64,000 nt of DNA from Loxodes magnus. Its lineage: Eukaryota; Ciliophora; Karyorelictea; Loxodida; Loxodidae. This document shows, piece by piece, positions 7,131 through 64,000 of this stretch (position 1 is its first letter; each line of letters opens with the position of its first letter). Made by a program: the position numbers and the translations under genes. The stretch lies in the NCBI GenBank assembly GCA_946699065.1, contig CAMPDV010001228.1, forward strand, positions 1 through 64,000. Direction: 5' to 3'. The notes under the pieces were generated by a model. That model ran no database searches. It was given only the letters and a program-made list of their open reading frames with translations, and was not told the origin of the DNA.

Positions 7131-10100
7131 AAATAAATAATAATGGCACTATGCTTCTAAGGTTTACCTCTTTAAATTCACTTGTATTTACTCTTATAAA
7201 ATTTCTGCTACCTCCTGCGAAGTCGTTCATAGATTTCTTGATCTTCCTTTTATCTTCGGTTCAATTTTCATCTTGAAAATAATTTCTTTTTTCCTCTTCT
7301 AGTTCTATATATTCTATAGCTCCTTTAAATATTTTCCTCATTATTTTATTGTTCGAATCCATTATTGATTCATTAATTCCAATCCTTGATAGCTTTATCA
7401 TAAAAAAGTTTAATCATCTTGCGTATAATATTTTAACTCAGTTTTCTTCAAATTTTTTTACTTATAGTATTTACTTAATTTTAAACTATTAACATATCCT
7501 TATTAGATATTCTTTTTTCTTGCAGAATCATCGTCATAATATTCTTATCTGCTAAATAATTTATTTATTTTTAGATTTTTCTCAATATCCATAGGATCTG
7601 CATTACTTTAATTTTTCTAGATTATTAGATGTTAATATAATTTAATTATTGATTCTATCTTCTATTTACTTTAGTTGGAAGTTTACCTTTTGCATTTCCG
7701 ATTTTTAGTTGATTTACTTTTTTAATTTCTTATTTTCTTACTTTATCTTCACAACGATTTATAAAAATGTTATTATTTTTTCGTTTAAATCCGAAACTTA
7801 AAATTTTAGGGTTTGATTTTTGTTATTTTTGATATACATATCTTTTTCGTAATTGATAGTTAAAATAGTTAGTCTTTTGCTTGATAAGAGGTTTATTGGA
7901 TAATATAAATAATTTTTAGGTTGATAATAAGTTTTTGATCTATGACTGACTAGTTGAGTTTGAAAAATAAGATTTTGATTAATTGAATAGTAATATAAAA
8001 TTGAGTCTATTAGATAGAATGTTTTTGAGTGATAATGTTGTTAGGATATATTAAGCAAATGATAGTGTTTTGAATTGAATTAAGGACATGTTTAGTTATT
8101 ATATTTATAAAGGGTTAGCTAGATTATTAGTTATTTATATTGTTTATAATATTTACTTTTATATTATGCTATATTATACTTTTAAAATCAAAATACCATT
8201 TTCTAGTTGTCCTTATCAATTACACTTGTTGGTAACTGATTTGATTGATGTCTAGTAATAATTTAGTATATAATATAATTTTAGAGTGTACTTAAGATTT
8301 GAAATGATAATAGAAATAAATAACTCTGATTATAGACATAAATTAGAAGTTAATAATAAAATATGTAAATAAAGTAGTTTAAGAGTACACTACATCTTAA
8401 TAGTATTAAACTAGAGAAATCTTACTAATAATATTAGTAGATTAAATAAAATAGAAGATATAGATAGAGGATATTAATAAATAGCTAAAAATAAGTAGTT
8501 AATATATTAATTAGAATATAAAATAGGGTTATAAAGTATAGACTGTGTGTTATAATATTAGTAATTCAAATTAATCATATTCAAGTAGTAGTTTATAATA
8601 ACAATCATTATATAAGCTAAATTCTTACATCTGCTTTAATCATATTATTACATAGATTATAAATTAAATACTTATCTATTACAAATTTTTAAAATACCAG
8701 CAACAATATCTCAGTAACACTTTAACACTTTATTACACAACCATAACTAAATCAAACTAACTAACTACATCCTTATTTACTATTATTTAAACTAACTATT
8801 TTATAATTCATAAACACACATTTTGTAGAGACTATATTAGATCATTACATATTATCTTTAAAAATTACTGAACCTATTTTAAACATTAATAGAAAGGATA
8901 TCAAATTAACACTTCTAGACATTATTTCAAAATCAAACAACTACTATCAACAAATCTAATACATCAGCTAAAATATATACCTATTATCAAAATATTACCT
9001 TAATTACTAATTCCAACATCTCCTTAATAGGAATCAATTTTTCATCAATAAAGTGAAAAAAGCAAGAAAGTTAGCAAAGATCTTAAAATATAATGCTAAT
9101 ATGCTTAGTAACTTTAAAATAGCTAAAGTATCTAAATTAGAAATTAATTAATAATTAAGTATTAATTTAAGATAAATATTTAAAGTTGTTAAATGTTTTT
9201 TCCATCTCTGCTTATATCAAAAATTACCCTCTATAATCAAAAACTTACTTATCATTAAATTATTTACATCCTAAAATAGAAAAATAACTACCTAGTATAA
9301 ATAATCTAATATTAATCATTACTATAACATTCTTTAATCAATTATATTAGGCATTACTTTCTTTTCAAATCAATCATTACCCCCTATAATATTAATAATA
9401 TTACATTCTATATCATTTTATTACTAACTTAGGTTAAATAATACAAGCTCATATAAGCAAATACTAGCTTCAATAAAATCAAAACCATCTTATAATTATT
9501 TCTTACAATCAAAAATTAAAAAGGTACCTGAAGTAAATTCTTACCGCCTGAGGTAATTTATTACCCTCTTATAATAATAAAAAATACCAGCTATAATAGT
9601 TTTTAAATACAAACTGTCTATAAAAAATATTTTACATTCTATAAATTTTTAAAATAACTTACTCACTATAAATATTTAAAATATCTCACTCACTATAAAT
9701 ATTTAAAATATTTCACTCACTATAAATATTTAAAATATCTTACAATCCATAAATATTTAAAATATCTTACAATCTATAAATATTTAAAATATCTTACAAT
9801 CTATAAATATTTAAAATATCTTACCAACTATAAATATTTAAAATATCTTACCAACTATAAATATTTAAAATATCTTACAATCTATAAATATTTAAAATGT
9901 CTTACTCCCTATAAATATTTAAAATATCTTACTCCCTATAAATATTTAAAATATCTTACAATCTATAAATATTTAAAATATCTTACCATCTATAAATATT
10001 TAAAATATCTTACAATCTATAAATATTTAAAATATCTTACCAACTATAAATATTTAAAATATCTTACATTCTATAAATATTTAAAATATCTTACCAACTA

Positions 10101-12278
10101 TAAATATTTAAAATATCTTACATTCTATAAATATTTAAAATAACTTACCATCTATAAATATTTAAAATATCTTACATTCTATAAATATTTAAAATATCTT
10201 ACCAACTATAAATATTTAAAATATCTTACAATCCATAAATATTTAAAATATCTTACCAACTATAAATATTTAAAATATCTTACTCACTATAAATATTTAA
10301 AATATCTTACATTCTATAAATATTTAAAATATCTTACATTCTATAAATATTTAAAATATCTTACATTCTATAAATATTTAAAATAACTTACCATCTATAA
10401 ATATTTAAAATATCTTACATTCTATAAATATTTAAAATATCTTACTCACTATAAATATTTAAAATATCTTACAATCCATAAATATTTAAAATATCTTACA
10501 TTCTATAAATATTTAAAATATCTTACAATCTATAAATATTTAAAATATCTTACCAACTATAAATATTTAAAATATCTTACATTCTATAAATATTTAAAAT
10601 ATCTTACCAACTAAATATTTAAAATATCTTACTCACTATAAATATTTAAAATATCTTACTCCCTATAAATATTTAAAATATCTTACTCACTATAAATATT
10701 TAAAATATCTTACATTCTATAAATATTTAAAATATCTTACCTACTATAAATATTTAAAATATCTTACTTTCTATAAATATTTAAAATATCTTACAATCTA
10801 TAAATATTTAAAATATCTTACATTCTATAAATATTTAAAATATCTTACAATCTATAAATATTTAAAATATCTTTCTCCCTATAAATATTTAAAATATCTT
10901 ACTCACTATAAATATTTAAAATATCTTACATTCTATAAATATTTAAAATATCTTACTCACTATAAATATTTAAAATATCTTACATTCTATAAATATTTAA
11001 AATATCTTACAATCTATAAATATTTAAAATATCTTACATTCTATAAATATTTAAAATATCTTACAATCTATAAATATTTAAAATAACTTACCATCTATAA
11101 ATATTTAAAATATCTTACATTCTATAAATATTTAAAATAACTTACCATCTATAAATATTTAAAATATCTTACTCACTATAAATATTTAAAATATCTTACC
11201 ATCTATAAATAATTAAAATATCTTACATTCTATTTTAAATAGAAATACCATCTTATTTTAAGTTTTACCTCCTTTATTTGTTTTTTTTACTTGCTATATA
11301 TTAAATAATTTACTTTCTGGATTTGTTAAATTACCAACTTAACATAATTATTTTACAATCTTTTTTATTATATACATTCTATATTTAATTATTACTCCCT
11401 TTCTTAGTATTCTTACAATCTTATTTATTTTATTACATTCTTAAATTTTATTTATTACTTTCTAGTTTTTAAAGTATTACTCACTTTTGTTAAATATATT
11501 ACACACTTTTTTAAAATTTACCTCCTATACATTTATTTCTAACTTTTTTCGAAGTCATTTTAGCCTTTTTTAAATTTTCTTACTTTCTCCTATTTTTGAT
11601 TATTTAATGCTTTCTAATTTTTATTATTATTTACATTCTATTATTATTATATTTACCATATTATTTTCTCATTATCTCGAAAACTAATTTTTTATTAATT
11701 ACTTTCTATCTTTATTTTTTACCTCCTAAATCTTATTTTCTCACCTCCTTAAATTATATTAATTACAGGCCTTCAATTTTAATTCTAGCTAAACCTCATC
11801 TCTATTCTCCATTTTATTTATTTTATGTTAACTATCTAATTTTTCTTATCCTTTATAAAGTTCATAAAAATCAGCGTCAATTCCTTCTAGTCTTTCTACT
11901 TTTTATTTCAGTTATTCAATTATTTCTCCTTCCTCTACTGTTAAGTTTATCTCTTCTTCATTTTCACTTAAAATCTTGACTTTTATTAGTTTCGGTTTCT
12001 GCTAATAAGATAGTTCAATTTTAGTTTCTTCAAGATGAAGTTATTTATATTCTTATTTACTTTCACTTGATTAGCCCTTTTAGTTTATTAAACTTTTTGG
12101 ATCATCAAATGAAACTTTTCTACAGTTTTCTTTTTGGGCACTGATAAGAACCCTCTCTTAAGTATTCTTCAAGAATACAAATTTGGCATACTTGATGTCC
12201 ACAAGGAAGGGTTACGGAAATTCGTATTTAAGAGTCGAAATGAACTAAGCATGAGCTGCACCTGTTAGATTCAGCCAT
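7131..12278 (-). CDS. RING + ubiquitin-like protein built from ~95 three-nucleotide exons
   Basis: ATG at 12,276-12,278. Residues 7-47 form a RING: C7-x2-C10-x15-C26-x-H28-x2-C31-x2-C34-x12-C47, then a last Cys after a 1-nt frame change in an A5 run. At about 11,993-11,770 lies a ubiquitin-like fold (IKVKIL...EEGEIIEQLKQKVERLEGI...LELKLK). From about 11,757 to 9,230 the gene is a chain of 14-37-nt (mostly 16-24) GT...AG introns separated by exons of exactly 3 nt, with a few of 6, 21 or 27 nt. Splicing in phase 1, set by the donor after codon GCC plus T, gives a charged peptide without TGA and enters in frame a normal exon at about 9,215 (ends DEKLIPIKEMLELVIK). The frame then stays open to about 7,690. 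The last part has a 14-nt intron at 7,461-7,474 (gtaaatactataag) and contains YARWLNFFMIKLS and SMNDFAGGSRNFI. Start of the last part and the stop are unresolved. Probably an E3 ligase; role inferred. Confidence 0.72.
9640..11233 (-). repeat. 27-bp tandem array = 24-nt intron + 3-nt exon, ~60 units
   Basis: On the coding strand each unit is a 24-nt intron beginning GTAAGATATT and ending ATTTATAG, followed by three variable bases. The intron is almost invariant, while the triplet varies among ATT, AAT, TTG, ATG, TGA, GGA, AAA and TAG. Triplets in order are not periodic. One unit near 10,605 has a shortened intron and one near 10,868 has GA in place of the donor GT. Units at the low end differ slightly in the intron (gtgag starts). 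Flanks outside the array keep the same AG-NNN-GT layout with unrelated intron sequences, so the triplets are exons and not satellite variants. Confidence 0.85.
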
Positions 12279-12985: not shown

Positions 12986-15900
12986 ATGCAATCAATCTGG
13001 AAACAACCATGCAAGGTAATGTCGAAACTTCACCTATTAGCATACAAAGCATCGTTCTTCTTCTTGCAATTCGAAGCTTGCCTCATTAGTTTGTCAATTC
13101 TTATTATCAAGCGTGAAGCAGATCTTTTTGCTTTATTTTTGCTACCTCAGCTTTGTATTATACCTCAAAGCGTTATGGAATTGAAGCCTTCCTAATTAAG
13201 CATAAATTTTGCTGAAGGAAAAAAATCGAATAATCTATTCTAAAGCCAATAATTTAGCTGAAGCTTCCGAAGGTAGAAATCTTTCCAAAAATATTTTGGA
13301 AGGGTTTACTTCTTCCTACTACAGGAGGAGAAGGAAGAGATTGCTTTTGCTTTTTATTTACCCTACTACTATCTAGCACTTGATGAAAATGTTGTCATGC
13401 TAGTCTTTATCCTTAATGCTATTATCGTTAACTTCCATGCTTCTAACCAAATTTTCTAATTCTCTCGACTTTAACTCTTCAATAATTTCAGATCCACATT
13501 AACATATCTAAACTGATCTCATATTTTAAATGATATCAAACTTCAAAGACATTACAAAAATATATCTCAGAGGCAAAATTAGTAGACTTTAATGACACTG
13601 GTATTTCTATTAAGGATCTACTTAAAAGCTTTAGAAAAACAGAATATTACTAACTAATAGAATCTCTAACTCATCAAAAAGACATTAAGTAAAATAGTTT
13701 TAGATTTAAAGATTCAAATTAAGATACTTAGATAGCATTATGAAGGTCTAATTTGTAATTTTCTTATTTTAAATTTCTGGTAAAATGAAATTTTAATCTT
13801 CTTATACTTTAGTTTAACTAAGATGATGAAGGTTTATATCTCTGGTAATGAGTATAGAGAGATGATTTTGTAGGATAACTGCACATTGTTTAAAATAGTG
13901 ATTGATATTCCGAGTGAAGAATTAAGATTTGAATGAAATTGTTAAGCTATAGACTAAAAATAGACTTCATATAATGAGGCAATCAAAAAAGAAGTAGAAG
14001 ATAAGTGTAATTTCTTTACATCTTCCATTAAGCTTTAAGGATAGTAATTTCTAGTATGAGCATTCTTAGAACTTGATGTACGTATCTATTTCAACAAACA
14101 AAAATAAATCTCTGATAAAGTGTACTTAAATATAACCAATAATAAGGTATCTCCAGTGGCTATAATGATACAGAATAATGAATATAGCAAAATAAATCCA
14201 TCTAATTTTTTATAATGTATAGAGTTGCTTCTAATTCAAGTGTAGATATAAAGACAGTTTCTTGATACCAAAGTTCTGGTAGATTTGATAATCTGCTACC
14301 TTCTTTGTCACTAAATTGTTTATATAAATTAAGGCATAAGAACTTGAGTAAGGAAATTACCATACATTTATTTTTGAAGTATAAGGAGTGATCAAGTGTA
14401 CTAGCCAAAAATAATCTATATTTACAGAGCTCCTCAAGTTGAAAATTTTATAGTGAGCTCTCAAAAAGGAAAAGCATGAGATACCTTATTTAGTCCTAAA
14501 GTGTGATGATGCTACTGATTTAGATGAAGATTATCCCTTAAGATACCAGTTCTTTTGCATGGGATCATTCTATAAAGAATTTCCTTTAAATTAGATGAAG
14601 AAATTAGCACTAAAAGCTTTAAGTTATTTAAATACTCTTAGTTTTTCTCCTATAGATATGAAACAGTTCTTATGATATCTATCCTAAAAAATAGAGAAGC
14701 AAGAATAGATGGCAATAGCAGTTTCAAGTTACTAAGAAGTAAGACTAAACGTAGCACCTGAAAGCCTGCAGAGTTATATAGACAGTATCTACCAATGTCT
14801 TAACTAGCAAACAAAGTACCAGATATCCTTAAATTAGACGTCTTTGCTTACGTAGATAATTAAACAGTTCTAATATATAAAATTTAACATTGAACAAGAA
14901 GTATAACCTAGTCTAATAACTAGGTGAAGTACCTTTAACTATATAAATAATCATACTTTTACATATAAAACTTCTAAAATCTAAATTTGATAAATCTTGT
15001 AAATAATTCTTCTATTCTATGAAAGGAGAAAGAAATTCCTACTAAAGAAAAGAGTTACGAGACTAGAGTCTTTTCTTTTTTATGATCTCAACCGTTGAAA
15101 CTCTAAAGGAGAAATAATGATAGTAATGGGAATTTCTCTGCCTAATTCCTAAGCTATTCAATGTTATTAAAGGATGCTTTGTTGTAATCTTTTTATTTGA
15201 AGAAGCAATTAATGTGAAATGGATGATTTTAGTTATATCCATCATTTAAATCTTCTGTTTACTAAATATCTGAAATGATAGATTCTATATAAGAAGGATA
15301 ATTTGAAGAAATTTAAAATCTAAGTCGAATATGTTCTAAGCTATAACCAAACTTAAACACCTTCAAATTTAGTGTGCCAATCGTGAGATATCAACGAAAA
15401 AAATGAGAAAATGGAACTTCATGCTCAATAGAAAAAATCCAACTAGCTAACTATTATAGGTGTAAATTGTAGTTAGTCAGGACTTTTTATACTCACTTCA
15501 CTTGTATAAGAGGCAGAAGAATAAGAAAATGAGGATAAAATGAAGAAAAGCAAGGGTAAGAGAATCAAATTTAAGAAGAGAGAAACAAAGAAATGTAAAA
15601 TTATGAAGAATCAAACTTAGGACTGGACTTAAATGAAAAAGAGAGGATAATGGAAATTAATCAAGTTATAAGCATCCAATTCCTGCTTAATCATTAGTAA
15701 TTTTATGTTTAATATTTTTCAATTTATATATTTATAACTCTGCATGTAACGTCAAAGAAAAAGGAAAATTTAGATAGAGCTTTATATTTAGTTCTTTAAA
15801 TCTGCCAAAATTATCCCAATGAACAATTAATCTTTTCATGACAGTTCCTTGATTAAAGATTCAATTCTAAGCTCTAAAAAAAATTTCATTTTGTATATAG

Positions 15901-18500
15901 ATTTTGCTATTGCTTCATGATGCTTTCTGGTAAACCTTATAATTGCTACTTAATAGAAAAGTTTAGGCTAAGATTTTGGATTTACGGTTTTAGTAGGTTT
16001 AGGAATGCCTATAATTTCATTTCAAACATTTTCACGTTTTTTAACACTGAAGAAACTATTCTTGACTATCTTGTCTCTTTATCAGCAACATTTTCTATTA
16101 TCTCTATTTGATCCATTATAGTCTTTTATTGCAATATAATGCTCAAAAAGATGCTTAGACTGCAAATGAATAAAACTATATCCTAAATATCATAAGCAGT
16201 TCATCCTCCTTAAGATGGTAATTAGATGAAGGAAGGTTAAAATGAGAAAAGGAATTGACTTAGCTAACCTAAAAGTAACTTCTAGATCTATGTTATGGTT
16301 GAAGTTAGCCCAACTTACTTTAATAAAGATACTTTATAGCATAAATAATACATAACGTGATGTTTATGAATCTTATATGCTTCAGAAAACTAAAGACTAA
16401 TATATGAGTAATGACTATATATCTCTTACCTTTGATTTATTAACTAATCAAACTCTTTCAAATAATCAAATCAAGACCTGCTTTAAAATAAGGCAGATTA
16501 GGAGAATTTCTACTCTCTTTGATTAAGAGATCAAAAGACTTTAGAGCTTAAACCTTCTAATAAAGCTTCAAAGCTTAGTTTTTTATATAAGCTAAAGATC
16601 TTAAAGTAATTAAAATCTCGAAGTATGAACAGCAGTTCTCCACCCTTCATTGGCAGTAAAAGTACAAAATATCTCATTTAATGGTATGAAATTGATCTTC
16701 ATAGATCTCTATAGAAACGCTAAACATCTACATTACTTTAAATAGTCAAAGGTAATCTGGATTTCAGTTAATGATAGTAATATAGGGAAGATCAAGAAGG
16801 TTAGGCATAAGTTGTAATTTAAGCATGAAAGTGAAAGAATGAAAAGAGGCTGAAAGAAGATTTAGCCTTAGTTTGTACTTAAAGAAGGAAATATACTGAA
16901 AAAAGTAATTTAAGCCAAACAATATTACACAGGTTAAGCCTTAAAGCGCTAAACTTCACTAATAGAACTGCAAATCTAAATGCAGGAAGGTATAAAATGC
17001 ACTCAGCTGAAACTAAAAGAAATGAGTAAAGCGCTAAGGATCAAGCAAAGGAGAAAAACCTCTTTGAAGATAGAACTATAAGCTTAAAGTATCCAAGTGA
17101 AGAATAATATTCTAGACTTGCATCAAAAATACTAAAGTAGGTAAGTTTTGACTTTACCCAAGACTAAGGTAGATAAAATAAATTATATAAGGATATTAAT
17201 TTGCTAACTAAGTTAAGCTTAAAATATTCTAAGGAATAAAGATTAATTATCTCTTTTAAGGCAAAAAACATTGAGTGTCTAATTTCAAACCCAGTATAAA
17301 TAAGAGAAAGCAAACTCTTCAGCTAGTATATAAAACAAGCTAGTTTTAGATAAAGCTTGGCAGTCACAGATAAAAGCTGATCTACTGAAATGCTATAAGA
17401 TGAACTACTTATCTACAATAAAAGTCTAAAATTAAGAGTTTCTCCTTGATTGAAATCATATAAGGATAACCTGTGGGTTTGCAAGGCTCAATTTCAGTTT
17501 TCTAAGAAGTTTTGACTCACTAAACTTCAAACTATCAGCTCTTCATTACTCAGTCAAATGGATTTAAGATTCACTTGATCTAATATCGTCAGAAAATTAA
17601 TTAAAATATGGAAATACAAACATAAGGTTGATAATTAAAAAGGAGCAAGCCCAATTAAATGTAGCTTATCTATTAAGTTAATTTAGCTTCAGCAGAAAAC
17701 TTCAAGTGTCTTTTTCTCTTTTAGCTAAAATCTAGAGCACATTAATAAATAGTTAAAGCAAGCCAAAGCTAAAAATCTTGATTATTCTTTCTTGCCAAGT
17801 AACTAAATGAAAAGCTAAAAGAGCAACTTGTGTGTGATTAGAATAGTAGAAATACTTGAAACTAAAAAAGTGCGTGAGTATGATAGAGGAATAAAAAGTG
17901 AGATTGGAAGTGATAATCAAGAAGATCAAGCAGTTAGAATAAGATGCCAGTAGATCAACATTATTACTTTAATTAAAGGGTGCAAAGAAAGGATTGGGCA
18001 TTTAATTAGACATACTTAAAGTTTAGATATTTAGTTACAAGTTATCAAATAGCTTTAGATATAAATAGTAATCCTATGAATATACTATCCATTCAAAGGG
18101 CTAGTCTTATGATAAACGATTATAGAAAAAAAATGATTTAATATATTAAAAAAGTTCACTTTTATTTGGCTGTTCATGTAAAGAAATAAGAAAAATGCAA
18201 GTTCTGGAATTTGCTCAGTAGATTATAAGAAGAATTTAAACGAAACTTATTTATAAAATACATTACAGACTTTCTCTTAGAGTAAGATTACATATCTCTC
18301 ACTATATAAAAGGGAGTAAATTCATAATTCTGATATTTTAGTTTAAACTATTACTTATGCAGCTTTTGCTGGATCATTATTAACCGCGGTTTTTTTATTT
18401 ACTTCTGTTAGTTTTATTCTGGTGGCTAAGCTCACATCCTTCTATTATTCTTACTAAAAATTTCATTTTATTCAAGGCTTTTGCAAAAGTTAAAACAACA
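12986..18500 (+). CDS. Large membrane protein region, REJ/polycystin-1-like (tentative)
   Basis: A chain of plus-strand frames, open with Q/Q/W decoding and changing frame at several points (small introns or indels), covers this region. Recognisable parts: at about 14,430-14,900 a REJ-like segment (YRAPQVENFIVSS..., then DLDEDYPLRYQFF, where REJ modules have W-D-x-D-x-PLxYxF). At about 15,270-15,530 a Cys/Trp-containing stretch (KKWENGTSCSIEKIQ...YYRCKLQ...FYTHFTC) resembles a GPS cleavage motif. Transmembrane segments follow at about 15,690 (SLVILCLIFFNLYIYN) and 16,075 (ATFSIISIWSIIVFY). A basic, low-hydrophobic stretch runs to TGA 18,077-18,079, and a further two-helix segment at about 18,350-18,450 (YAAFAGSLLTAVFLFTSVSF) may belong to it or to a neighbour. 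The region 12,986-13,500 is coding-like but unassigned. Exon borders are not resolved; two genes are possible. Confidence 0.45.
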
Positions 18501-18559
18501 GAAAAAATGGTTAAATTATATGAACTTTTGAAGAAAATTTGTATTAAATTAGAAAAAAT

Positions 18560-18715
18560 ACTATTAGTATACTAATTAAACTTAATAGCTTTAAAAATTG
18601 TTTAAGTGGAATAAATGATAAGAATATCAAAATTAAGATAAAAAAATTAATAGAAAATAAGTATAAAATAATTATTAATTAATTATCTAAAATTATATAA
18701 AAAAATGGATATAAC
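18560..18715. other. AT-rich stretch
   Basis: No feature recognised; probably the 3' flank of the preceding coding region. Confidence 0.3.
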
Positions 18716-20722: not shown

Positions 20723-21022
20723 TTTAAAAGATGGTGGGAGCTGAGATTGACCTTCTTGACTAAACTTTTCTTGCTTGGAAAAAGTTCCTACCCTGTCGCT
20801 GAGAAAGTCCCTGTTCAGAGTCATTTTCTCAAGGGAACTCTGTCTTCTAGATTATCCGCTCTTGGTATGGGCTTGAAGCCTTGCTGTTCATAGCGATGGA
20901 ATTTCCTGGCAGCTGTTTCTGGACACAATAGGATATCCTCAGTATTCCTAAAAAAAGAGCATCGGGTTGTATAACTGGAAAGGAGTTTCAGTTCCCAAAA
21001 TTCTTTTAGTTAAAATTATTAA
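20723..21022 (+). mobile_element. SINE, full copy, with 18-bp target duplication
   Basis: A 300-bp element starting TTTAAAAGATGGTGGGAGCT and ending at an AT-rich tail. It is flanked by TTTAATTATATAATATAA at 20,705-20,722 and the same 18-mer with one mismatch at 21,023-21,040. Related copies lie at 34,003 and 63,280. No coding frame; tRNA or 7SL ancestry not recognised. Confidence 0.85.
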
Positions 21023-23975: not shown

Positions 23976-24047
23976 TCCCCTTTAGTCTAGGGCTTAGGAT
24001 ATTCGGCTCTCACCCGAAAGATCGGGGTTCAAGCCCCGGATGCGGAA
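23976..24047 (+). tRNA. tRNA-Glu (CTC), acceptor stem imperfect
   Basis: D-arm, anticodon arm (CGGCT-CTC-ACCCG), and T-arm (CGGGGTTCAAGCCCCG) fold well and the anticodon is CTC. The acceptor stem pairs TCCCCTT with ATGCGGA, giving mismatches at pairs 4 and 6; the 3' strand predicts TCCGCAT. Two changes in the 5' strand only suggest a recent pseudogene or a 5' end altered by insertion. Elements for Pol III (A and B boxes) are intact. Confidence 0.8.
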
Positions 24048-24085
24048 CTATTTTGTTACGCCTACTAAATATATAAAATTAAAAA

Positions 24086-24158
24086 CGCCCAACGTGGGGC
24101 TCGAACCCACGACCACCAGATTAAGAGTCTGACGCTCTACCGACTGAGCTAGCCGGGC
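24086..24158 (-). tRNA. tRNA-Lys (CTT)
   Basis: Complete 73-nt cloverleaf on the minus strand. Acceptor GCCCGGC pairs with GTTGGGC using G-U pairs, D-arm GCTC/GAGC, anticodon arm CAGA-CTCTTAA-TCTG with anticodon CTT, and T-arm GTGGG-TTCGAGC-CCCAC. No intron. It converges on the tRNA-Glu gene 38 bp away. Confidence 0.93.
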
Positions 24159-36799: not shown

Positions 36800-37325
36800 T
36801 AACTTGCTATTTGACTTAATTAAATTTTACGATTAAAGATATAAGATATTGGTTATGCATTTAAATGAATGTTGAATGGTAATAATGTTTTTTGTTATAT
36901 GAAGTATTTGCTTTATTTATTAAAAGGTTTTATATTCTTAAATATTATTGGTTTAATAAAAAAGATTGAGTAATATAGGTTATTGAAATTAGTGAGGTAT
37001 GTGATTTAAAGTGGTAATATTTAAAATATTAAAAATATAATTTTGTTAAATGAAGACGTATAATAAATTAAAGTTGAATTTTATTCTATAAAATTTTATA
37101 TATTTATTTTTAGATTTTGTAAAAATTTCAAGTTGAGTATAAATTTTCATTTTTTTTGTGGAGTAGTTAAAATTTTATTTGTACATGCAAAGTTAGTTTA
37201 TAATCTTGATTATAAATAAAAAATTTTAATTAAGTATTTTATTTATTTTTTATGATTGATATTTAATATTTAATATTGATTATTATTAATTATTAATTAT
37301 TAATAATTATTATTATATATTATTT
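36800..37325. other. AT-rich 3' flank
   Basis: Downstream flank of the WD40 gene, ending in (TTA/ATT)-rich DNA just before the retroelement copy at 37,330. No gene seen. Confidence 0.4.
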
Positions 37326-37329
37326 TTTA

Positions 37330-37684
37330 AAACCGCCATAGTTGTTCGAAGGTGAACAACAAAGTCATCTTCATCAGAGGTTGGGGAATTTAAGTACCCA
37401 TAATTGACACATGTCGTCATCTGCTTTGGTGATGCAATGAGACACAATCCTGCCATGTCCTTGGACCTCAAGCAAGTATTAAAGATTACGAGTATTCTAA
37501 AATTATATCAGTATTGAACATTTTTATCAGTACTGAATAATTATACCAGTATTGTACAAGATCTACCAGTATCTGATAATTTTATCAGTAACAAACATTC
37601 TTGTCAGTATGAAACATTTTTTTTAAAGAGCTGCGCACCAATGAGAGTGCTACGCGCTCTATAACCAAATTTATTTATTTATTA
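37330..37684 (+). mobile_element. TTTA-tailed retroelement copy
   Basis: Longest-start copy (AAACCGCCATAGTTG) carrying the full body, the terminal hairpin at 37,625-37,665 and the TTTATTTATT tail. An ORF1-like frame begins only a few bases beyond the tail. Confidence 0.8.
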
Positions 37685-37690
37685 TTTATA

Positions 37691-38530
37691 AAATAAAATG
37701 GCTCCTAAGAAATAATTGACCAAAAACTAACAGGAAATCGAAAAATAAAACTCTCTAATCGAAATATACTCCCTAGAAGCGAAAACAAAAAATGCAACAA
37801 TCACTTCTAGACTTGATTTAACAATTAAATTCTCTAACTTTTACTGTGCAATAATTACAAAACGAAAATTAATGGTTAAAAACGGAAATAAGCACTAAAA
37901 TCTTGATGTTGCAAGGTAATTAAAAACTGGAAAAAATGGAGCAAAAAATAGTAAAAATTAATAAATCATACAATTTTAATCTTAATAATAATCCTATGGT
38001 AATAGAAGGATAAAATTTAAATTCTTTTTCGGATCGGAAAAAAATTGTCAATTTTTTAAAATTCCAAAAATGCTAAAAATGCTAAAAATGCTTAAAAATA
38101 GGACATAATTCGAAATATCGAAAAAAAGATGTTTTTATTGCTAAAGGTTGGACACATCTTTAGAAGATGCTGGTATTTTCAGAAGAAGCAAGAATCTAAT
38201 ACTTGAAAGATATGAAATAATATAACAAAATTATACTGTTCTCCAGAAGGAAGAATTTACATGAAAAATTATACGGTGGAGATTAATTACTATTGGATAT
38301 AGTAAATGTTCAAAAAAGAAGGACGAGGAAGATGTTGGGATCTAATTGAGATTGAAGAAAACTTCTTAAGATCAAGAAAGGTTAAATCTGTACAACACGA
38401 TATGTAATAGAAGAAATAAGCTCTGAAGAAGACCTAAACGATTAATTTACATCTTAAAACTCATAAACTAATTTGTGGCAAACCAAATAAAGGTGAAGTC
38501 ACTTTAATAAATTATGTTATGTTTATGAAT
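37691..38530 (+). CDS. Retroelement ORF1-like fragment with zinc-knuckle remnant
   Basis: Opens MAPKKQLTKNQQEIEKQ, close to the start MVPKKQSP of the frame at 42,063. About 130 codons on is a Cys-rich stretch (KCQKCQKCLKIGHNSKY) with the CxxC...GH part of a CCHC knuckle. Beyond it the 3' end (TTTGTGGCAAAC...) resembles 42,770-42,820. Decayed; no reverse transcriptase follows. Confidence 0.5.
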
Positions 38531-39612: not shown

Positions 39613-39921
39613 CTGCCATTTAATTTGAAAAATGGATTAGATAGGTAAATTGAAATGAATTATGAATGATATTTTGATATTAATATAATTATATTGGAGT
39701 AAAATATTTATGACTATAGTAATAAAAACTAGTATTTAAATTTTGGATATGGCTACATATTATAGTATTTACTATTATATTCTGTTTCAACTATGGTAAT
39801 AAATAGCGTATTTATGATTTGATTGTTTTTAGTTACTAATAAAGACTAATTTAGATAATTTAAAGGAAAAATGTAAATATTATGCATTTGATTAATAATT
39901 TATAATATATTTACTAAGTTA

Positions 39922-40479
39922 TCAGCTTGTAGTTTTAAAGTTTATTTTAAGTTTTGTAAATTTTGCTTATTAGCTAGTATTTCTTCAATACTATCATTAT
40001 AATGGATTTAATTAATTATTATATTTAATTGATTAGTTATAGAATTAAAGTCACTTTTCTTTACTCAAAAGTATTTTCTCAATAACTTATAAAGTAAGAG
40101 TTAATCAAATAGGCTAATATAGCTAAAATATTTTCTTAAGTTTAAAGAAATTATTCATGTTCTTACCTTTTAATTAGATATTAAATAGTAAGATAATTAC
40201 AGTTTAATGGTGAAAACATATCTGTTTGCTATTCAAATTACCTTTATTTATTTAGTCCATGAAAATGTTAAATTTTTCAATCCATTATCTCCTTTTTGTT
40301 ATCTTATGTTAGTATACAATATTTTCTTTATCTCATTAAATTTATTTTTGATACTTTTTTAATTCATTTCTTAAACGTTTCTTTTAAGTATTAGCAACAT
40401 ATCCACAACTTAATTTAACTTCTTATTTTTCCTATATCATTATCTAGCTTAACCAGCTTCAAAGAATATGTAGCTCATT
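39922..40479 (-). repeat. Segmental duplication, copy A, ORF1 part of LINE lineage 2
   Basis: Nearly identical to 56,320-56,873. On the minus strand it is a continuous frame (NSITNQLNIIINQIHYNDS, then EEILANKQNLQNLKQTLKLQ) which in copy B continues into the long coiled coil of lineage 2. TGA occurs at plausible Trp sites. Below 39,922 the two copies diverge abruptly. Confidence 0.75.
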
Positions 40480-44237: not shown

Positions 44238-45632
44238 TTAGTTATGACTTCTAATACTTCTATAACTCAATTTTTCTAAATCAATCCTCATTATTGAAAC
44301 TCTTCCCTATTCTACAGCAAAAACATATCCATAGTAGTTTCTTATTTTCATCTCCGTTAAAGCTCCAACATCTTTAAAAATTTAACTTTATTATCATTAT
44401 TCTTTGCTTCTTTTATATATTCTTCTTGAAAATTCTTTCGTAAATGGATTTTTCATACCTCCAAATATGACAAAAGGCTCTAAACAAACTATAGGATATA
44501 AAACAACTTCAGGAAGACTCAGATTTTACTTACTTCATCTATCATTCTATATGCTGTATTTTCATATATCTTTTAAAATCTATTCTTTCTAATTTCCACC
44601 TCCAAAAGAATAAATATTTTATACATCTTTATCTACTACTAAAGTTTAGCCTTCTATTTTAAATGGAAATTAAGTACAGTTTTATCACTTACTTTAGTTT
44701 CCTATCTTTAACTTTTCTACTGATTATAAAGCTTGATTATTACTAGTAATTCCTCCAACCACATAAACATATTTTTAAGCAGCTGCTATTCCAAAACCAC
44801 CTCTTCCCTCATTTAGATCACTAAGTTTTATTCTATTACCTTCAAAATCAAATTATCAAGTTTCTTTTATTCCTTTCTTTTAATTTATGTTATATCCTCC
44901 AATGAAATATAACTTATTTTAATATTCTATACTTTTGCTGTCAACAGGAATTATAATTTAAACTTAGACTTATCGTAATTACTCTGTTTAAATATTAAAT
45001 AAACTTAATTTTTAAATTCCAAAATTAAAATAGTGAATATAGTTAGATTATATAAAGTGTTAGGTTAGTTTATGTTAATTAGTCTAAATAATATTTGGTT
45101 ACTTAGTATTGTGTTATAGTTTTTATCTTATTAGATTGTAAGTTAATTTAGACTTTAGTATTGTAGGTGGTTATGAGTTATATTAGAGTATAGTTGGTTT
45201 TAGTGATTAGTAGAATTAGATAATATTTGAGTGTTATTTTTGGTAGATAAATGTTGGTTAATGATTGATGATGATATTAGTTAGTGGTATTATGAGAGTA
45301 TTACTAATGTTTGATTATTTGGTTGTAATGGTTTTAGATTTTTCCATAATTTACCTCCTTATCTCTTTTAATTTCTATCTAGCATCTTAAATCTTTTATA
45401 TGTATTATTAGTTTTAAAATATCATTCTTATTAAATCACTTTCTTAAGGTAAATCATCAAATCTAAAATGGAATCCTTTTTAACAAATAGGACATTACAT
45501 TATGCCTTATAATCAGTACTCAGTATTCAAACACAAACCACAGTAAATATGTCCACAAGGTAAGACAGTTGGAAGAGCATTAGTTAAGTTGTAATCTTCT
45601 AAGCAGATTAAGCATTTTGGTAACGCTTACAT
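44238..45632 (-). CDS. RING-kelch protein, copy A
   Basis: ATG 45,630-45,632. RING residues 7-50: C7-x2-C10-x15-C26-x-H28-x2-C31-x2-C34-x12-C47-x2-C50, full C3HC4, with W40 from TGA. Then a helix to about residue 93, a linker of about 110 residues with almost no G on the coding strand (Asn/Thr/Ile/Gln/His), and kelch blades from about residue 215 (KLYFIGGYN, YVYVVGGITSN, NIYSFGGG, DIWKYSIQNDRWSKQN, FVIFGG). Expected function: E3 ligase with a kelch substrate propeller. TGA encodes Trp in DIW and DRW. The codon matching copy B's stop is TAA (44,238-44,240), so with this code the frame reads on for over 150 codons to no clear TGA. Confidence 0.85.
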
Positions 45633-47226: not shown

Positions 47227-48284
47227 AATTAATTAATTAAATTAGCCTGGTTTCACCATTGTTTGGTTCACTACGAAAAAATAAAGAAACCAAATTTAAT
47301 TATTAAACAAATAAATAAATAAATTTGATTATAGAGCGCGTAGCACTCTCATTGGTGCGCAGCTCTTTAAAAAATGTTTCATACTGATAAGAATGTTTGC
47401 TACTGATAAAATTATCAGATACTGGTATAATTATTCAGTACTGATAAAAATGTTCAATACTGATATAATTTAAGAATAGTCGTAATCTTATCTACTTGTT
47501 GGAGGTCCAAGGACATGGCAGGATTGTGTATAATGCATCACCAAAGCAGAGGATGACATGTGTCAATTATGGGCACTTAAATTCCCCACCTCTGATGAAG
47601 CTCGCAATATTATTTCTTTTTCGTTCCAGAATTATATTAAATTTAAATTAAGCCAGCGCCGAAGGTCTAAAAATCTTATGTCTCTATGCCAAACCAAAGC
47701 AGAGGAAGACATAAAGTCAATTATGGGTACTTAACTTCCCCAAGCTCTGATGAAGATGACCTTGTTGTTCACATTCGAGCAACTATGGCTGTTAAAAAAT
47801 ATATATATTAATAATAGTCTAGAAATTTTTCTAGCTTCATTTGGTCTCTTTGATTCTTATCTTGTTCTCTCCATTTTTATAATCAAAATTGATTTTCTTC
47901 ACTCTTTAAATTCTTGTAATTCTTCCAAAGGCTGGAGTTAGAGAACATTCCACTATTCGAGTCAAATGACCCAATTATGTTAAATTCTTCTAAATAATAG
48001 TTATTTGCGATCTCAGTCATTTCTTTGTTGTTTTCTAAATTCCTGATTTGAATAGCGACATGTAAAATCAAGATAACTCTGAGATCTGGATTTCGGTTCC
48101 CTCTAGTCGACTTCTCGTTCGAAAGAGAGAACCCTCAAACAAGTAAGGTTTGTCACACAATGGGCCCGTTCTTACTTGTTTATGGTGGCATCTATTACAA
48201 GAGTACTTGGAGTGCAGACATGACTGCGCCGGATTGCCTAGTTGGTCGACTAGAAACCAGAATCCATTTTAAAAATGAATACAT
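47227..48284 (-). mobile_element. ~1.06-kb TTTA-tailed retroelement inserted in LINE copy A
   Basis: Absent from copy B, where the LINE is continuous near 61,020. On the minus strand it starts with a GC-rich head at about 48,255-48,080 (shared with 57,205-57,400) and continues with a 62-codon frame ending in TGA at 47,883. Two partial repeats of the TTCATCAGAG region follow (about 47,800-47,690 and 47,595), then the terminal hairpin and TTTATTTATT tail at about 47,365-47,310. This is the most complete copy of the family. Confidence 0.75.
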
Positions 48285-54349: not shown

Positions 54350-56873
54350 AATACATATTTATTTTATCCCTTTTTTATCAACCTAAATATGTACTAATTC
54401 TTTTCTAATTTCAGGGTGTTAATGGTAAAATTAGATTAGAATGTAAATTACCTGAGTTGTATATTCCTCTAACAGCTTTTTGTCTATTACTATTTTTTGT
54501 ACTATCTACTGTACCTTATGTTAATTCTTTATTTATTGTTACATATCTTCCTTGTATGTTTTTCATTTCATATTAATTTCTTCTTCATGTTTCCTCTTGA
54601 GTTAATTAAAATAGTTATTAGTAGTTTGAGTTGCAATGTTGATTTAAATATTAGTTGTCTAAATCTGCTATTCTTTTTTCCAAGGTTGAGTCTCTTGCTT
54701 AAATAATTATTAATTTCTTATTTTCTTAATTTCTTCCAGTTTTCTAAGTTATTCTAGATATTTAAAATAAATTCCATATTAAGTTAATGATATGTTTATT
54801 GAAGTTTTTAGTGATTTATATCTATAAAGTTTGTTTGACAAAATTTTTAACTTTATTCCAATTTTTCAGTGTTAACTTAAACTTCTTAATGTTATCATTA
54901 AACTTAAATTTCCTAATCTTATTATAAATTAATTGTTTAGATAATTTTATTTTCTACATTACATTTTATTTAAAGGTTTTAATCTGTCTAAATTTATTTA
55001 TTTTAGCTTAGTAATTCTGTTTAGGTAGAATTTTCTGCTGTTTATTAAAGTTTGAGATAATATTGTTTTTATATGTCTATATTAGATTTTTCTATGGCTA
55101 GTAGTTATTATATATTAGAAGTTTTTAATTTTTCAATTTCATTATGCTTTTAAGATATCAATATTTGAAATTCCATATCTTTTTATTATAATTCTTCTTG
55201 AAACTCCATGCTTTATTTAAAATTCTACTAATTTTATATTTTTAGCTGATTATTTAAAGTTATTAGCTTTATAGTTATTAGTCTTTATTTATAAATAATT
55301 AATTTTAAATTATCAACTATTGGCTATTTAATAGATTTAATTAATTTCATCAGTTTATGCAGTTTAATTATTATATTGAGAAATTAAATCTGTTTAAACT
55401 TCTATCTCTTTAGAATTATTTTGCTTTTTTCCAAAAATTAATTAATTATATTTAAACTATTGTTATTACTTTTAGTATTTAGATTTTAGTATTTAATTTT
55501 AAATTTTCTTTAGTTTCTTATAAGTTTTATTTACATACACTTTGTACTATTCTATTACTGCTTCATACTTACTTATAATCCTTTCCTCATTTTCTTAAGT
55601 TGATAGAAATTTTTAAGAATAATTTGATTATTTTATAGATTTTATATTTATTATTCAAGTTCTTTAATCTAATTTAAGAACTATTTTTTACTAGTTTCAA
55701 ACTCTTAGGATTACATTTGATCCTTTACTTCAATAAGTTAAGCTTAAAGTTATATGTTTTTGATTTCAAGATTATTTATATTTTTTAGATTTTAATTTTC
55801 TTAATTCTCTTGGTTTAAAAGATTATTGAATTTTTAATTTTAGTACTATACATGATTATACTCTAAATTTTAAGTAAATATGGAATATTCTATAATTCCC
55901 TTATTATTTTCATTTTTATTCATTCAAATCTTCTATCTTAAATATCTTTATTATTCCCCCTATTATTTAACATTTATACCTTTTATTCAACTGTGCCGCC
56001 AAAATTCCTTTTCAACAGTATATTTCTCAACTTTTAAAATGCGCTTCAACTGATGACATCGCTCCAAGGAATATTTAAGTTATCTTAGTGGAACCCTAAG
56101 AAAAGTATTTATTGTCTATTAGCTACATTGTTTTAGTATTTATCTTATTAAATTGACTATTCATTTTATTTACTTCAGTTGAAGCGTTTCCAAATTCTAG
56201 ATTTATGAAAGTGTAAACATCTGCCTATGCTTTTTTTATAAGATCACAGCTTCTTTATTGCTAGATAAGAGTCGCTAAGAGTTTAAATTAGCGATTTTGA
56301 ATTAGTTTCCATATTGATAGTTATCAGCTTATAGTTTTAAAGTTTATTTTAAGTTTTGTAAATTTTGCTTATTAGCTAGTATTTCTTCAATACTATCATT
56401 ATAATGGATTTAATTAATTATTATATTTAATTGATTAGTTATAGAATTAAAGTCACTTTTCTTTACTCAAAAGTATTTTCTCAATAACTTATAAAGTAAG
56501 AGTTAATCAAATAGGCTAATATAGCTAAAATATTTTCTTAAGTTTAAAGAAATTATTCATGTTCTTACCTTTTAATTAGATATTAAATAGTAAGATAATT
56601 ACAGTTTAATGGTGAAAACATATCTGTTTGCTATTCAAATTACCTTTATTTATTTAGTCCATGAAAATGTTAAATTTTTCAATCCATTATCTCCTTTTTG
56701 TTATCTTATGTTAGTATACAATATTTTCTTTATCTCATTAAATTTATTTTTGATACTTTTTTAATTCATTTCTTAAACGTTTCTTTTAAGTATTAGCAAC
56801 ATATCCACAACTTAATTTAACTTCTTATTTTTCCTATATCATTATCTACCTTAACCAGCTTCAAAGAATATGT
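54350..56873 (-). CDS. LINE lineage 2 ORF1, long coiled coil
   Basis: One frame from 56,873 down to about 54,350 with no break I can see and only a few TGAs at Trp-compatible sites (for example QIKWIVN, KEFWRHSWIK). Heptads dominate (NQIKELEQQIQNLQNNQI, QQKDMEFQILISQKHNEIEK). No zinc knuckle found, unlike lineage 1. The upstream end is cut at the duplication breakpoint at 56,873. It could alternatively be a host coiled-coil gene into which the LINE fell, since ORF1 and endonuclease meet with a frame change near 54,340. Confidence 0.5.
56320..56873 (-). repeat. Segmental duplication, copy B, left part
   Basis: Matches 39,922-40,479. At 56,873 the match jumps to 42,714 of copy A (ACGAAGATCGG), so 2.2 kb present in A is missing here or was inserted there. 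Confidence 0.8.
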
Positions 56874-63279: not shown

Positions 63280-63448
63280 TAATTTCAACTAAAAGAGTTT
63301 TTGGACATCAAACTCTTTCCGATTGTACGACCCGACACTCTCTTTTTATGGAATAACGGGGATATCCTGTTGTGCTCCAGGCACAGCTGCTAGGGATTTC
63401 CATCGCTATGAGCAGCCAGGTTTCAAGCTTCTACCAAGAGCGGATACA
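63280..63448 (-). mobile_element. SINE, 5'-truncated copy
   Basis: Minus-strand match to the 3' half of the SINE at 34,003: CTCTTGGTAGAAGCTTGAA, CCTGGCTGCTCATAGCGATGG, ACAGGATATCCCCGTTATTCC, CCAAAAACTCTTTTAG. Its 5' end is truncated and lies within 20 bp of the rRNA-like sequence. Confidence 0.85.
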
Positions 63449-63464
63449 GAAATTTTCTAGCCAT

Positions 63465-64000
63465 ATAAATGGATGGGAGAAACCGCCAGGTAAGGAGTTT
63501 GACTGGAGCGGCACATCTGTTAAAAGATAACACATGTGTCCTACAGCCAGCTCAGAGCGGACAGAAACCGCTCACAGACCAAAAGGAGAAAAGTTGACTT
63601 CATTCAACCTCTCATTGTCAGGATGAACTGGGAAATCATGGCATATCGATCCTTTATATTTTATGAGTTTTAAGCCAGAGGTGTCAGAAAAATTACCACA
63701 GGGATAACTGGCTTATGGTAGCCAAGCGTTCATAGCGACGTTGCCTTTTGATTCATCGATATCGGTTCTTCCTATCATTGTGAAGCTGAATTCACCAAGT
63801 GTTCTATTGCTCATCCGTCAAAAGAGAACGTAAGCTGGGTTTAGACCGTAGTGAACCAGTTTAATTTTACTGTATTGATCACTGCATCGCCATAATAATC
63901 CAACTCAGTACTAGAGGAACCGTTGGTCCAGATCACTGGTATCGCCATTGGTTGAACAGCCTTTTGGTTACGCTACCATCACCATAGATTATGACTGAAC
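63465..64000 (+). rRNA. 28S rRNA 3' segment, diverged (probable pseudogene), runs off the window
   Basis: Starts at GCCAGGTAAGGAGTTTGAC and follows the universal 3' domain: GGCACATCTGTTAAAAGATA, GAGGTGTCAGAAAA, TTACCACAGGGATAACTGGC, AAGCGTTCATAGCGACGTTG, CTTCCTATCATTGTGAAG, GCTGGGTTTAGACCGT, CCAACTCAGTAC, ATTATGACTGAAC. Invariant sites are altered: the sarcin-ricin loop reads AGTACTAGAGGAAC instead of AGTACGAGAGGAAC, and GATCCTTCGATGTCGG reads GATTCATCGATATCGG. The 5' part of 28S is absent, replaced by the SINE. So it is an rDNA fragment under little constraint. Confidence 0.85.

What the first reader, a model, noticed from the sequence alone, without database searches (positions are those of the whole stretch)
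9230..11760. A gene region made of ~95 exons of exactly three nucleotides
Seen: on the minus strand the pattern AG-NNN-GT repeats with GT...AG segments of 14-37 nt (mostly 16-24) between triplets. About 60 units have the same 24-nt intron, giving a 27-bp 'satellite'; about 35 more, on both sides, have unrelated intron sequences but the same layout. Longer exons are 6, 21 and 27 nt, all multiples of three. The donor after the ubiquitin-like domain fixes phase 1 (GCC plus T). In phase 1 the array has no TGA, against ten TGAs in phase 0, and the peptide is charged and balanced (begins WGEIFEIMRKQY, later NEYDQYQLKLRNQYQ). The frame enters the next normal exon correctly. I know of no described gene with runs of single-triplet exons. 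Inference: introns multiplied like introners, or intron homogenisation acted on a tandem unit while exons were kept by selection.
Basis: partly seen in the sequence, partly recalled or inferred. Interest (0 to 1): 0.97.

Follow-up and report, generated by a model that had tools for sequence, protein, structure and literature searches.

The report
Gene segment of three-nucleotide exons
A ciliate-like gene appears to store about a hundred amino acids as roughly ninety separate three-nucleotide exons spaced by tiny introns, a gene layout I could not find described and which only RNA sequencing can confirm.

Summary
The pattern is real. On the minus strand, 11766-9211 parses into 95 internal exons (91 of 3 nt; 6, 21, 21, 27) and 96 introns. 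Fifty-nine units form a 27-bp satellite; the flanks hold 41 introns of mostly unrelated sequence with the same layout. A parser blind to multiples of three scores 45 on each flank; shuffles and other window pieces reach at most 9. Satellite exon columns vary 29 times more than intron columns. TAA/TAG read as Gln and internal TGA as Trp (RING-Kelch gene pair), as in karyorelict ciliates; flank introns average 19.1 nt against 19.3 for RNA-seq introns of Loxodes magnus. Best reading: a RING-UBL gene with a spliced run of single-triplet phase-1 exons, grown by copying intron-plus-triplet units, with protein-level selection on the triplets. Against: no RNA; a frame break in the RING; four satellite units with damaged splice sites; no database match for the spliced peptide; codon scores that favour phase 1 overall but phase 2 inside the satellite; a weakly coding next exon.

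The parts
12122..12278 (-). RING-like domain from an ATG at 12278; reading frame breaks at about 12137-12122 before the last cysteine
   Evidence: Pfam zf-C3HC4_2 21.5 bits, below gathering 27; frames shown; sequence
11767..12121 (-). Rest of the exon with the ubiquitin-like domain; ends GCC T, i.e. phase 1
   Evidence: PF00240 17.3 bits, E 0.004, below gathering 25.4, match about 11986-11843; 11768-12106 open over 113 codons
11227..11766 (-). 5' flank of the array: 23 introns (one GC-AG) and exons of 3, 6, 21 and 27 nt
9639..11226 (-). Satellite part: 59 units of a 24-nt intron (one of 22 nt) plus a triplet
9211..9638 (-). 3' flank of the array: 18 introns, triplets and one 21-nt exon
8987..9210 (-). 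Predicted next exon, entered in phase 1, open to TGA at 8989-8987
   Evidence: weakly coding

Best explanation
A RING-UBL gene of a karyorelict-like ciliate has a stretch in which nearly every three nucleotides of coding sequence form an exon of their own. 95 internal exons (91 of three nucleotides), all in phase 1, are joined by removal of about 96 introns of mostly 16-24 nt, adding about 116 residues. Inferred splicing: intron definition, removed roughly 5' to 3', so each donor has a long joined exon upstream and each triplet is only the end of the growing exon; skipping any triplets keeps the frame. Inferred origin: repeated tandem copying of an intron-plus-triplet unit; old units (flanks) have diverged introns but keep AG-NNN-GT, the young burst is the satellite, where exchange keeps introns alike while protein-level selection keeps triplets different. 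Shown: layout, its statistics, intron-length match; well supported: genetic code. Inferred: transcription, splicing, translation, order of removal, origin.
For: Flanks keep AG-NNN-GT while intron sequence and length vary. Parser blind to multiples of three: 45 and 45 against maxima of 9 in 300 shuffles of each flank and in 300 other window pieces; its four non-3 exons are 21, 21, 27 and 30 nt. Flank introns mean 19.1 nt, 39 of 41 at most 25, against RNA-seq introns of Loxodes magnus of mean 19.3, mode 17, 93% at most 25 (PMC11441545, section 9); +3 is A in 34 of 41 (GT, AG and +3 A were required or favoured by the parser). TAA/TAG=Gln and TGA=Trp from the RING-Kelch pair: six internal TGAs in one copy, one of them TGG in the other copy. 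Phase 1 is the phase in which the UBL exon ends and the only one free of TGA in all three exons of 21 or 27 nt. Satellite exon columns mean pi 0.592, intron columns 0.0205, n 58 of 59 units, the 22-nt unit left out. A 2-nt shorter intron leaves the triplet grid intact.
Against: No RNA or protein evidence. Frame break in the RING. Four satellite units with a lost donor (1) or acceptor (3). The spliced peptide matches nothing in Pfam or PDB. Codon score from a small training set: phase 1 +3.7, phase 0 -24.8, phase 2 -2.6 bits in all, but inside the satellite phase 2 scores above phase 1 (0.18 against 0.03 per codon). Triplet-order shuffles reach the observed score in 0.108 (whole array) and 0.018 (satellite) of 2000. 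Satellite triplets have eight types and no C in 177 nt, against 21 types and 6 C in 36 flank triplets, unlike ordinary coding sequence. Lag-2 excess of triplets (19 against 9.8) may be two-unit duplication. The two RING-Kelch copies show no third-position excess of differences (16, 23, 20), so their coding constraint is unproved.
Confidence: 0.64

Rival explanations
1. Relic: the array was once a spliced run of microexons, but this copy is a pseudogene and is decaying.
For: Frame break in the RING domain; four satellite units with broken splice sites, three of them the same variant; weakly coding next exon.
Against: UBL exon open over 113 codons; the flank parse finds intact borders at 41 of 41 introns, one of them GC-AG, though the parser asks for them; the break lies in an A-rich run where assembly indels are common (recalled).
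Confidence: 0.15
2. The array is transcribed but removed in one or a few large steps; the triplets are frame-neutral pseudo-exons that are seldom included.
For: All parsed exons are multiples of three and all introns phase 1, so any donor can join any downstream acceptor in frame.
Against: Unused internal splice sites should decay, yet the flanks keep triplet spacing between AG and GT while introns diverge; 93% of Loxodes introns are at most 25 nt, so a 2.5-kb intron would be far outside, if the organism is like Loxodes.
Confidence: 0.11
3. A non-coding minisatellite, or an array of DNA-binding sites with a motif like TAG-NNN-GTAA.
For: 27-bp period, 59.7 copies, 91% matches; strong strand bias of G and C (skew -0.80 at 10001-12000); codon scores do not favour phase 1 inside the satellite.
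Against: Does not explain that all four non-3 exons are multiples of three, the agreement with the phase of the UBL exon, the intron-like lengths, or variation confined to three columns.
Confidence: 0.05
4. An unspliced protein repeat of nine residues, since no frame is closed if TGA is sense.
For: 27 bp is nine codons; phases 1 and 2 through the consensus unit also lack TGA (reading).
Against: Flank introns of 16, 17, 19 and 20 nt and the 22-nt satellite intron shift the frame; intron columns show no third-position pattern of change (by eye).
Confidence: 0.03
5. The short segments are removed from DNA during nuclear development, like internal eliminated sequences.
For: A ciliate is likely; insertions of 15 bp and more were examined in L. 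magnus (passage).
Against: GT-AG ends and intron-like lengths; L. magnus is reported without extensive DNA elimination (title and passages).
Confidence: 0.02

Closest known systems
Tiny spliceosomal introns of ciliates (Loxodes, Stentor, Paramecium)
   Same: GT-AG, AT-rich, about 15-25 nt; flank lengths close to Loxodes magnus; P. bursaria median 24 nt (passages of PMC12862383)
   Different: Here introns outweigh exons 2208 to 348 nt in the array and nearly all exons are single triplets
3-nt microexons of animals and plants (Drosophila homothorax, RPS24)
   Same: Frame-keeping exons of three nucleotides (search listing and abstract starts)
   Different: There one or a few in a gene, as far as the listing shows; here 91
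Micro-exon genes of schistosomes and bicycle genes of aphids (recalled, not looked up)
   Same: Genes built largely of short, frame-keeping exons
   Different: Exons longer than one codon and not a satellite of codon-sized units (recalled)
Introner elements
   Same: Many near-identical introns
   Different: Amoebophrya introners spread over the genome and carry inverted and direct repeats (passages of PMC7789003); here fixed 27-bp head-to-tail units
Venom gene families with introns more conserved than exons (recalled)
   Same: Exon diversity exceeds intron diversity after duplication
   Different: There between paralogous genes, here between codon-sized units of one gene

Membership tests
Ciliate tiny spliceosomal introns | GT-AG borders and length of about 15-25 nt | tested here: met
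   41 flank introns: 40 GT-AG, 1 GC-AG, mean 19.1 nt, 38 of 41 between 15 and 25 nt; satellite 24 nt; borders were asked for by the parser, but the number of such chains is far above null
Ciliate tiny spliceosomal introns | Removed from RNA | not testable with these tools
   no RNA data
Karyorelict genetic code (table 27) | TAA/TAG Gln and internal TGA Trp | tested here: met
   RING-Kelch gene and its copy; TGA in one copy is TGG in the other at 44537; Pfam hit when TGA is read as Trp. Same code reported for Amoebophrya ex K. veneficum
Karyorelict genetic code (table 27) | TGA as stop near the mRNA end | not tested
   no transcript ends known
Microexon genes | Many consecutive short exons, each a multiple of three | tested here: met
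   95 of 95 parsed internal exons are multiples of three; predicted, not seen in RNA
Introner elements | Same intron dispersed at many unrelated loci | tested here: inconclusive
   no such chain elsewhere in the window; no exact hit of the 24-nt intron in genome contigs, nor of intron plus GTAAG in viral contigs; own genome not held
RING E3 ligase | Complete C3HC4 pattern in one frame | tested here: not met
   frame breaks before the last cysteine; Pfam below gathering
Ubiquitin-like domain | PF00240 at the gathering score | tested here: inconclusive
   17.3 bits against 25.4

The most novel reading that the evidence does not exclude
The array is a splicing-coded diversity generator: as any donor can join any downstream acceptor in frame, the cell makes many in-frame protein variants from one locus, and selection keeps the triplets diverse while introns exchange freely.
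Probability: 0.13. Interest if true: 0.97.

Novelty: new variant of a known kind. Interest (0 to 1): 0.87.

Why it matters
If spliced as predicted, 91 exons of three nucleotides would sit in one message, with introns making up 86% of the region. It would test how little exon a spliceosome needs, and in what order introns go, many times over in one transcript. It would be a natural case in which the coding and the intron part of one tandem repeat evolve apart. It also warns that gene finders and repeat maskers will file such a gene as satellite DNA.

Tried and rejected
Ideas dropped: (1) Tetrahymena or Paramecium germline DNA: the Tetrahymena breakage sequence is not found beyond chance (1 match at up to 3 mismatches, 4.98 expected), and internal TGA=Trp speaks against both. 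(2) Oxymonad Streblomastix: search listing only. (3) Amoebophrya ex Karlodinium veneficum shares the code and is AT-rich (passages of PMC12005148); its genes average 2.6 exons in the MAKER set; not excluded. (4) A Kelch-like look of the 3' flank peptide: no Pfam hit at E up to 10. (5) Higher-order blocks in the triplet order: longest repeat 4, null mean 3.84; adjacent identical 8 against 9.9; only lag 2 in excess (19 against 9.8, 0.001 of 2000 shuffles). (6) Alternation of hydrophobic residues in the satellite peptide: only marginal against shuffled triplet order (lag 1 0.054, lag 2 0.066). (7) A simple gene finder on 8 stretches gave 3 introns (22, 26, 31 nt), too few to describe introns elsewhere. 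(8) Relatives in IMG/VR: none confirmed for the UBL exon or the Kelch part. (9) Pfam on 20 hand-picked ORFs: one hit; read-through of 4 further regions, 3 frames of one strand each: hits in 1 of 12 frames. The window was not scanned in all six frames.

Full report
What is there. On the minus strand a RING-like domain (ATG at 12278) and a ubiquitin-like domain (exon ending GCC T at 11767) are followed by a 2.55-kb stretch that parses into alternating tiny introns and exons. With one GC-AG intron admitted there are 95 internal exons: 91 of 3 nt, one of 6, two of 21 and one of 27, 348 nt in all, and 2208 nt of intron. The middle is a 27-bp satellite of 59 units; 45 of 59 introns are identical. 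Both flanks have the same layout with other introns.

Is it more than chance? AG-NNN-GT sites are about 8 and 10 times over expectation in the flanks (19 against 2.4, 18 against 1.9; maxima 8 and 7 in 500 Markov sequences each), and all six chains of four or more such sites in the window lie here. A parser that rewards 3-nt exons and penalises every other length alike scored 45 in both flanks; 300 Markov shuffles of each flank and 300 random pieces of the rest of the window never exceeded 9. Its four longer exons were 21, 21, 27 and 30 nt, all multiples of three without being asked to be.

Which organism. No genome is held for the window. TAA and TAG are read through in the RING, UBL and Kelch stretches as Gln. 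A RING-Kelch gene at 45659-44230 has six internal TGAs, several where Kelch repeats carry Trp (consensus recalled; Pfam hit with TGA as Trp); in its second copy, 59400-57970, 95.8% identical, one of the six is TGG. The differences between the copies show no third-position excess (16, 23, 20), so I rest TGA=Trp on the domain match more than on the exchange. Karyorelict ciliates use this code, and RNA-seq introns of Loxodes magnus have mean 19.3 nt, mode 17, 93% at most 25, few under 16, and fewer than expected divisible by three (PMC11441545: passages, and sections 8 and 9). The 41 flank introns have mean 19.1, 39 of 41 at most 25 nt, one under 16, and 10 of 41 divisible by three. A karyorelict is the best guess; Amoebophrya ex K. 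veneficum has the same code and is not excluded.

Reading frame. The UBL exon ends in phase 1. With TGA as Trp the other phases would hold 10% and 15% Trp from TGA alone, high for a protein. Only phase 1 is free of TGA in all three exons of 21 or 27 nt. But in the satellite a phase-1 TGA cannot arise from the eight triplets present, so that part is not independent evidence. Codon scores favour phase 1 overall (+3.7, -24.8, -2.6 bits for phases 1, 0, 2), yet inside the satellite phase 2 scores higher (0.18 against 0.03 per codon), and the training set is small. The peptide has no match in Pfam or PDB.

Evolution. Within the satellite, diversity per site is 0.592 in the triplets and 0.0205 in the introns (58 of 59 units). 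Neutral tandem duplication would give like values (inference). Constraint on intron sequence is an unlikely cause, for flank introns show that intron interiors may differ. So either protein-level selection keeps triplets apart while exchange makes introns alike, or the triplets mutate unusually. Two intron variants are linked to the nearest triplet on one side (list), which fits exchange with breakpoints inside introns, on seven cases. The satellite triplets come from a small set: eight types and no C in 59, against 21 types and 6 C in 36 flank triplets. Adjacent flank introns are more alike than random pairs (no significance test), and TRF finds four short 20-23 bp duplications in the flanks, so unit duplication seems old and recurring.

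How it would work (inference). Introns this short must be recognised by intron definition. If they go from the 5' end on, every donor has a long upstream exon by the time it is used, and the triplet is merely the last three nucleotides of it; no step needs a 3-nt exon to be recognised alone. Every join of a donor with a downstream acceptor keeps the frame, so errors cost residues and not the frame, which would let the array grow.

What speaks against. There is no RNA. The RING domain has a frame break in an A-rich run at about 12137-12122. Four units have damaged splice sites. The next exon is weakly coding. A dead or dying copy is a serious rival.

Literature. Full-text searches for tiny or 3-nt exons in ciliates, germline genes, introners and Loxodes (others) listed no gene with a run of single-triplet exons. 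I saw listings and abstract starts, and passages or single sections of the papers. Only the held open-access library was searched; supplements were not, so the unexplained 'orphan introns' of the Loxodes paper (figure legend) stay open.

Noticed in passing
45659-44230 and 59400-57970, minus strand: Two copies (95.8% identical) of a RING-Kelch gene with in-frame TGAs; one TGA is TGG in the second copy, which supports TGA as Trp.
   Followed up: yes
63350-64000 and 20853-20923: Fragment of eukaryotic LSU rRNA (398.7 bits), with a 71-nt inverted match at 20.9 kb; the sarcin-ricin loop looks altered (consensus recalled).
   Followed up: no
80-400, 1402-1739, 37308-37699, 47294-47816: Related repeats rich in 19-bp units, in both orientations, two of them forming an inverted pair 1.16 kb apart; perhaps ends of a mobile element.
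   Followed up: no
39917-40216 and 56319-56618: A 300-nt stretch repeated with 100% identity.
   Followed up: no
45340-45000, minus strand: Stretch rich in A and C between the RING and Kelch parts of the RING-Kelch gene, unlike the rest of that gene.
   Followed up: no
13500-18700, plus strand: Long gene-like stretch with protein-like pieces in three frames and internal TGAs, REJ-like by eye and recall, without a Pfam hit.
   Followed up: partly
12137-12122, minus strand: Frame break inside the RING domain of the array gene: pseudogene or assembly indel.
   Followed up: partly
23976-24048 plus, 24086-24158 minus: A pair of convergent tRNA genes, Glu (ctc) and Lys (ctt).
   Followed up: no
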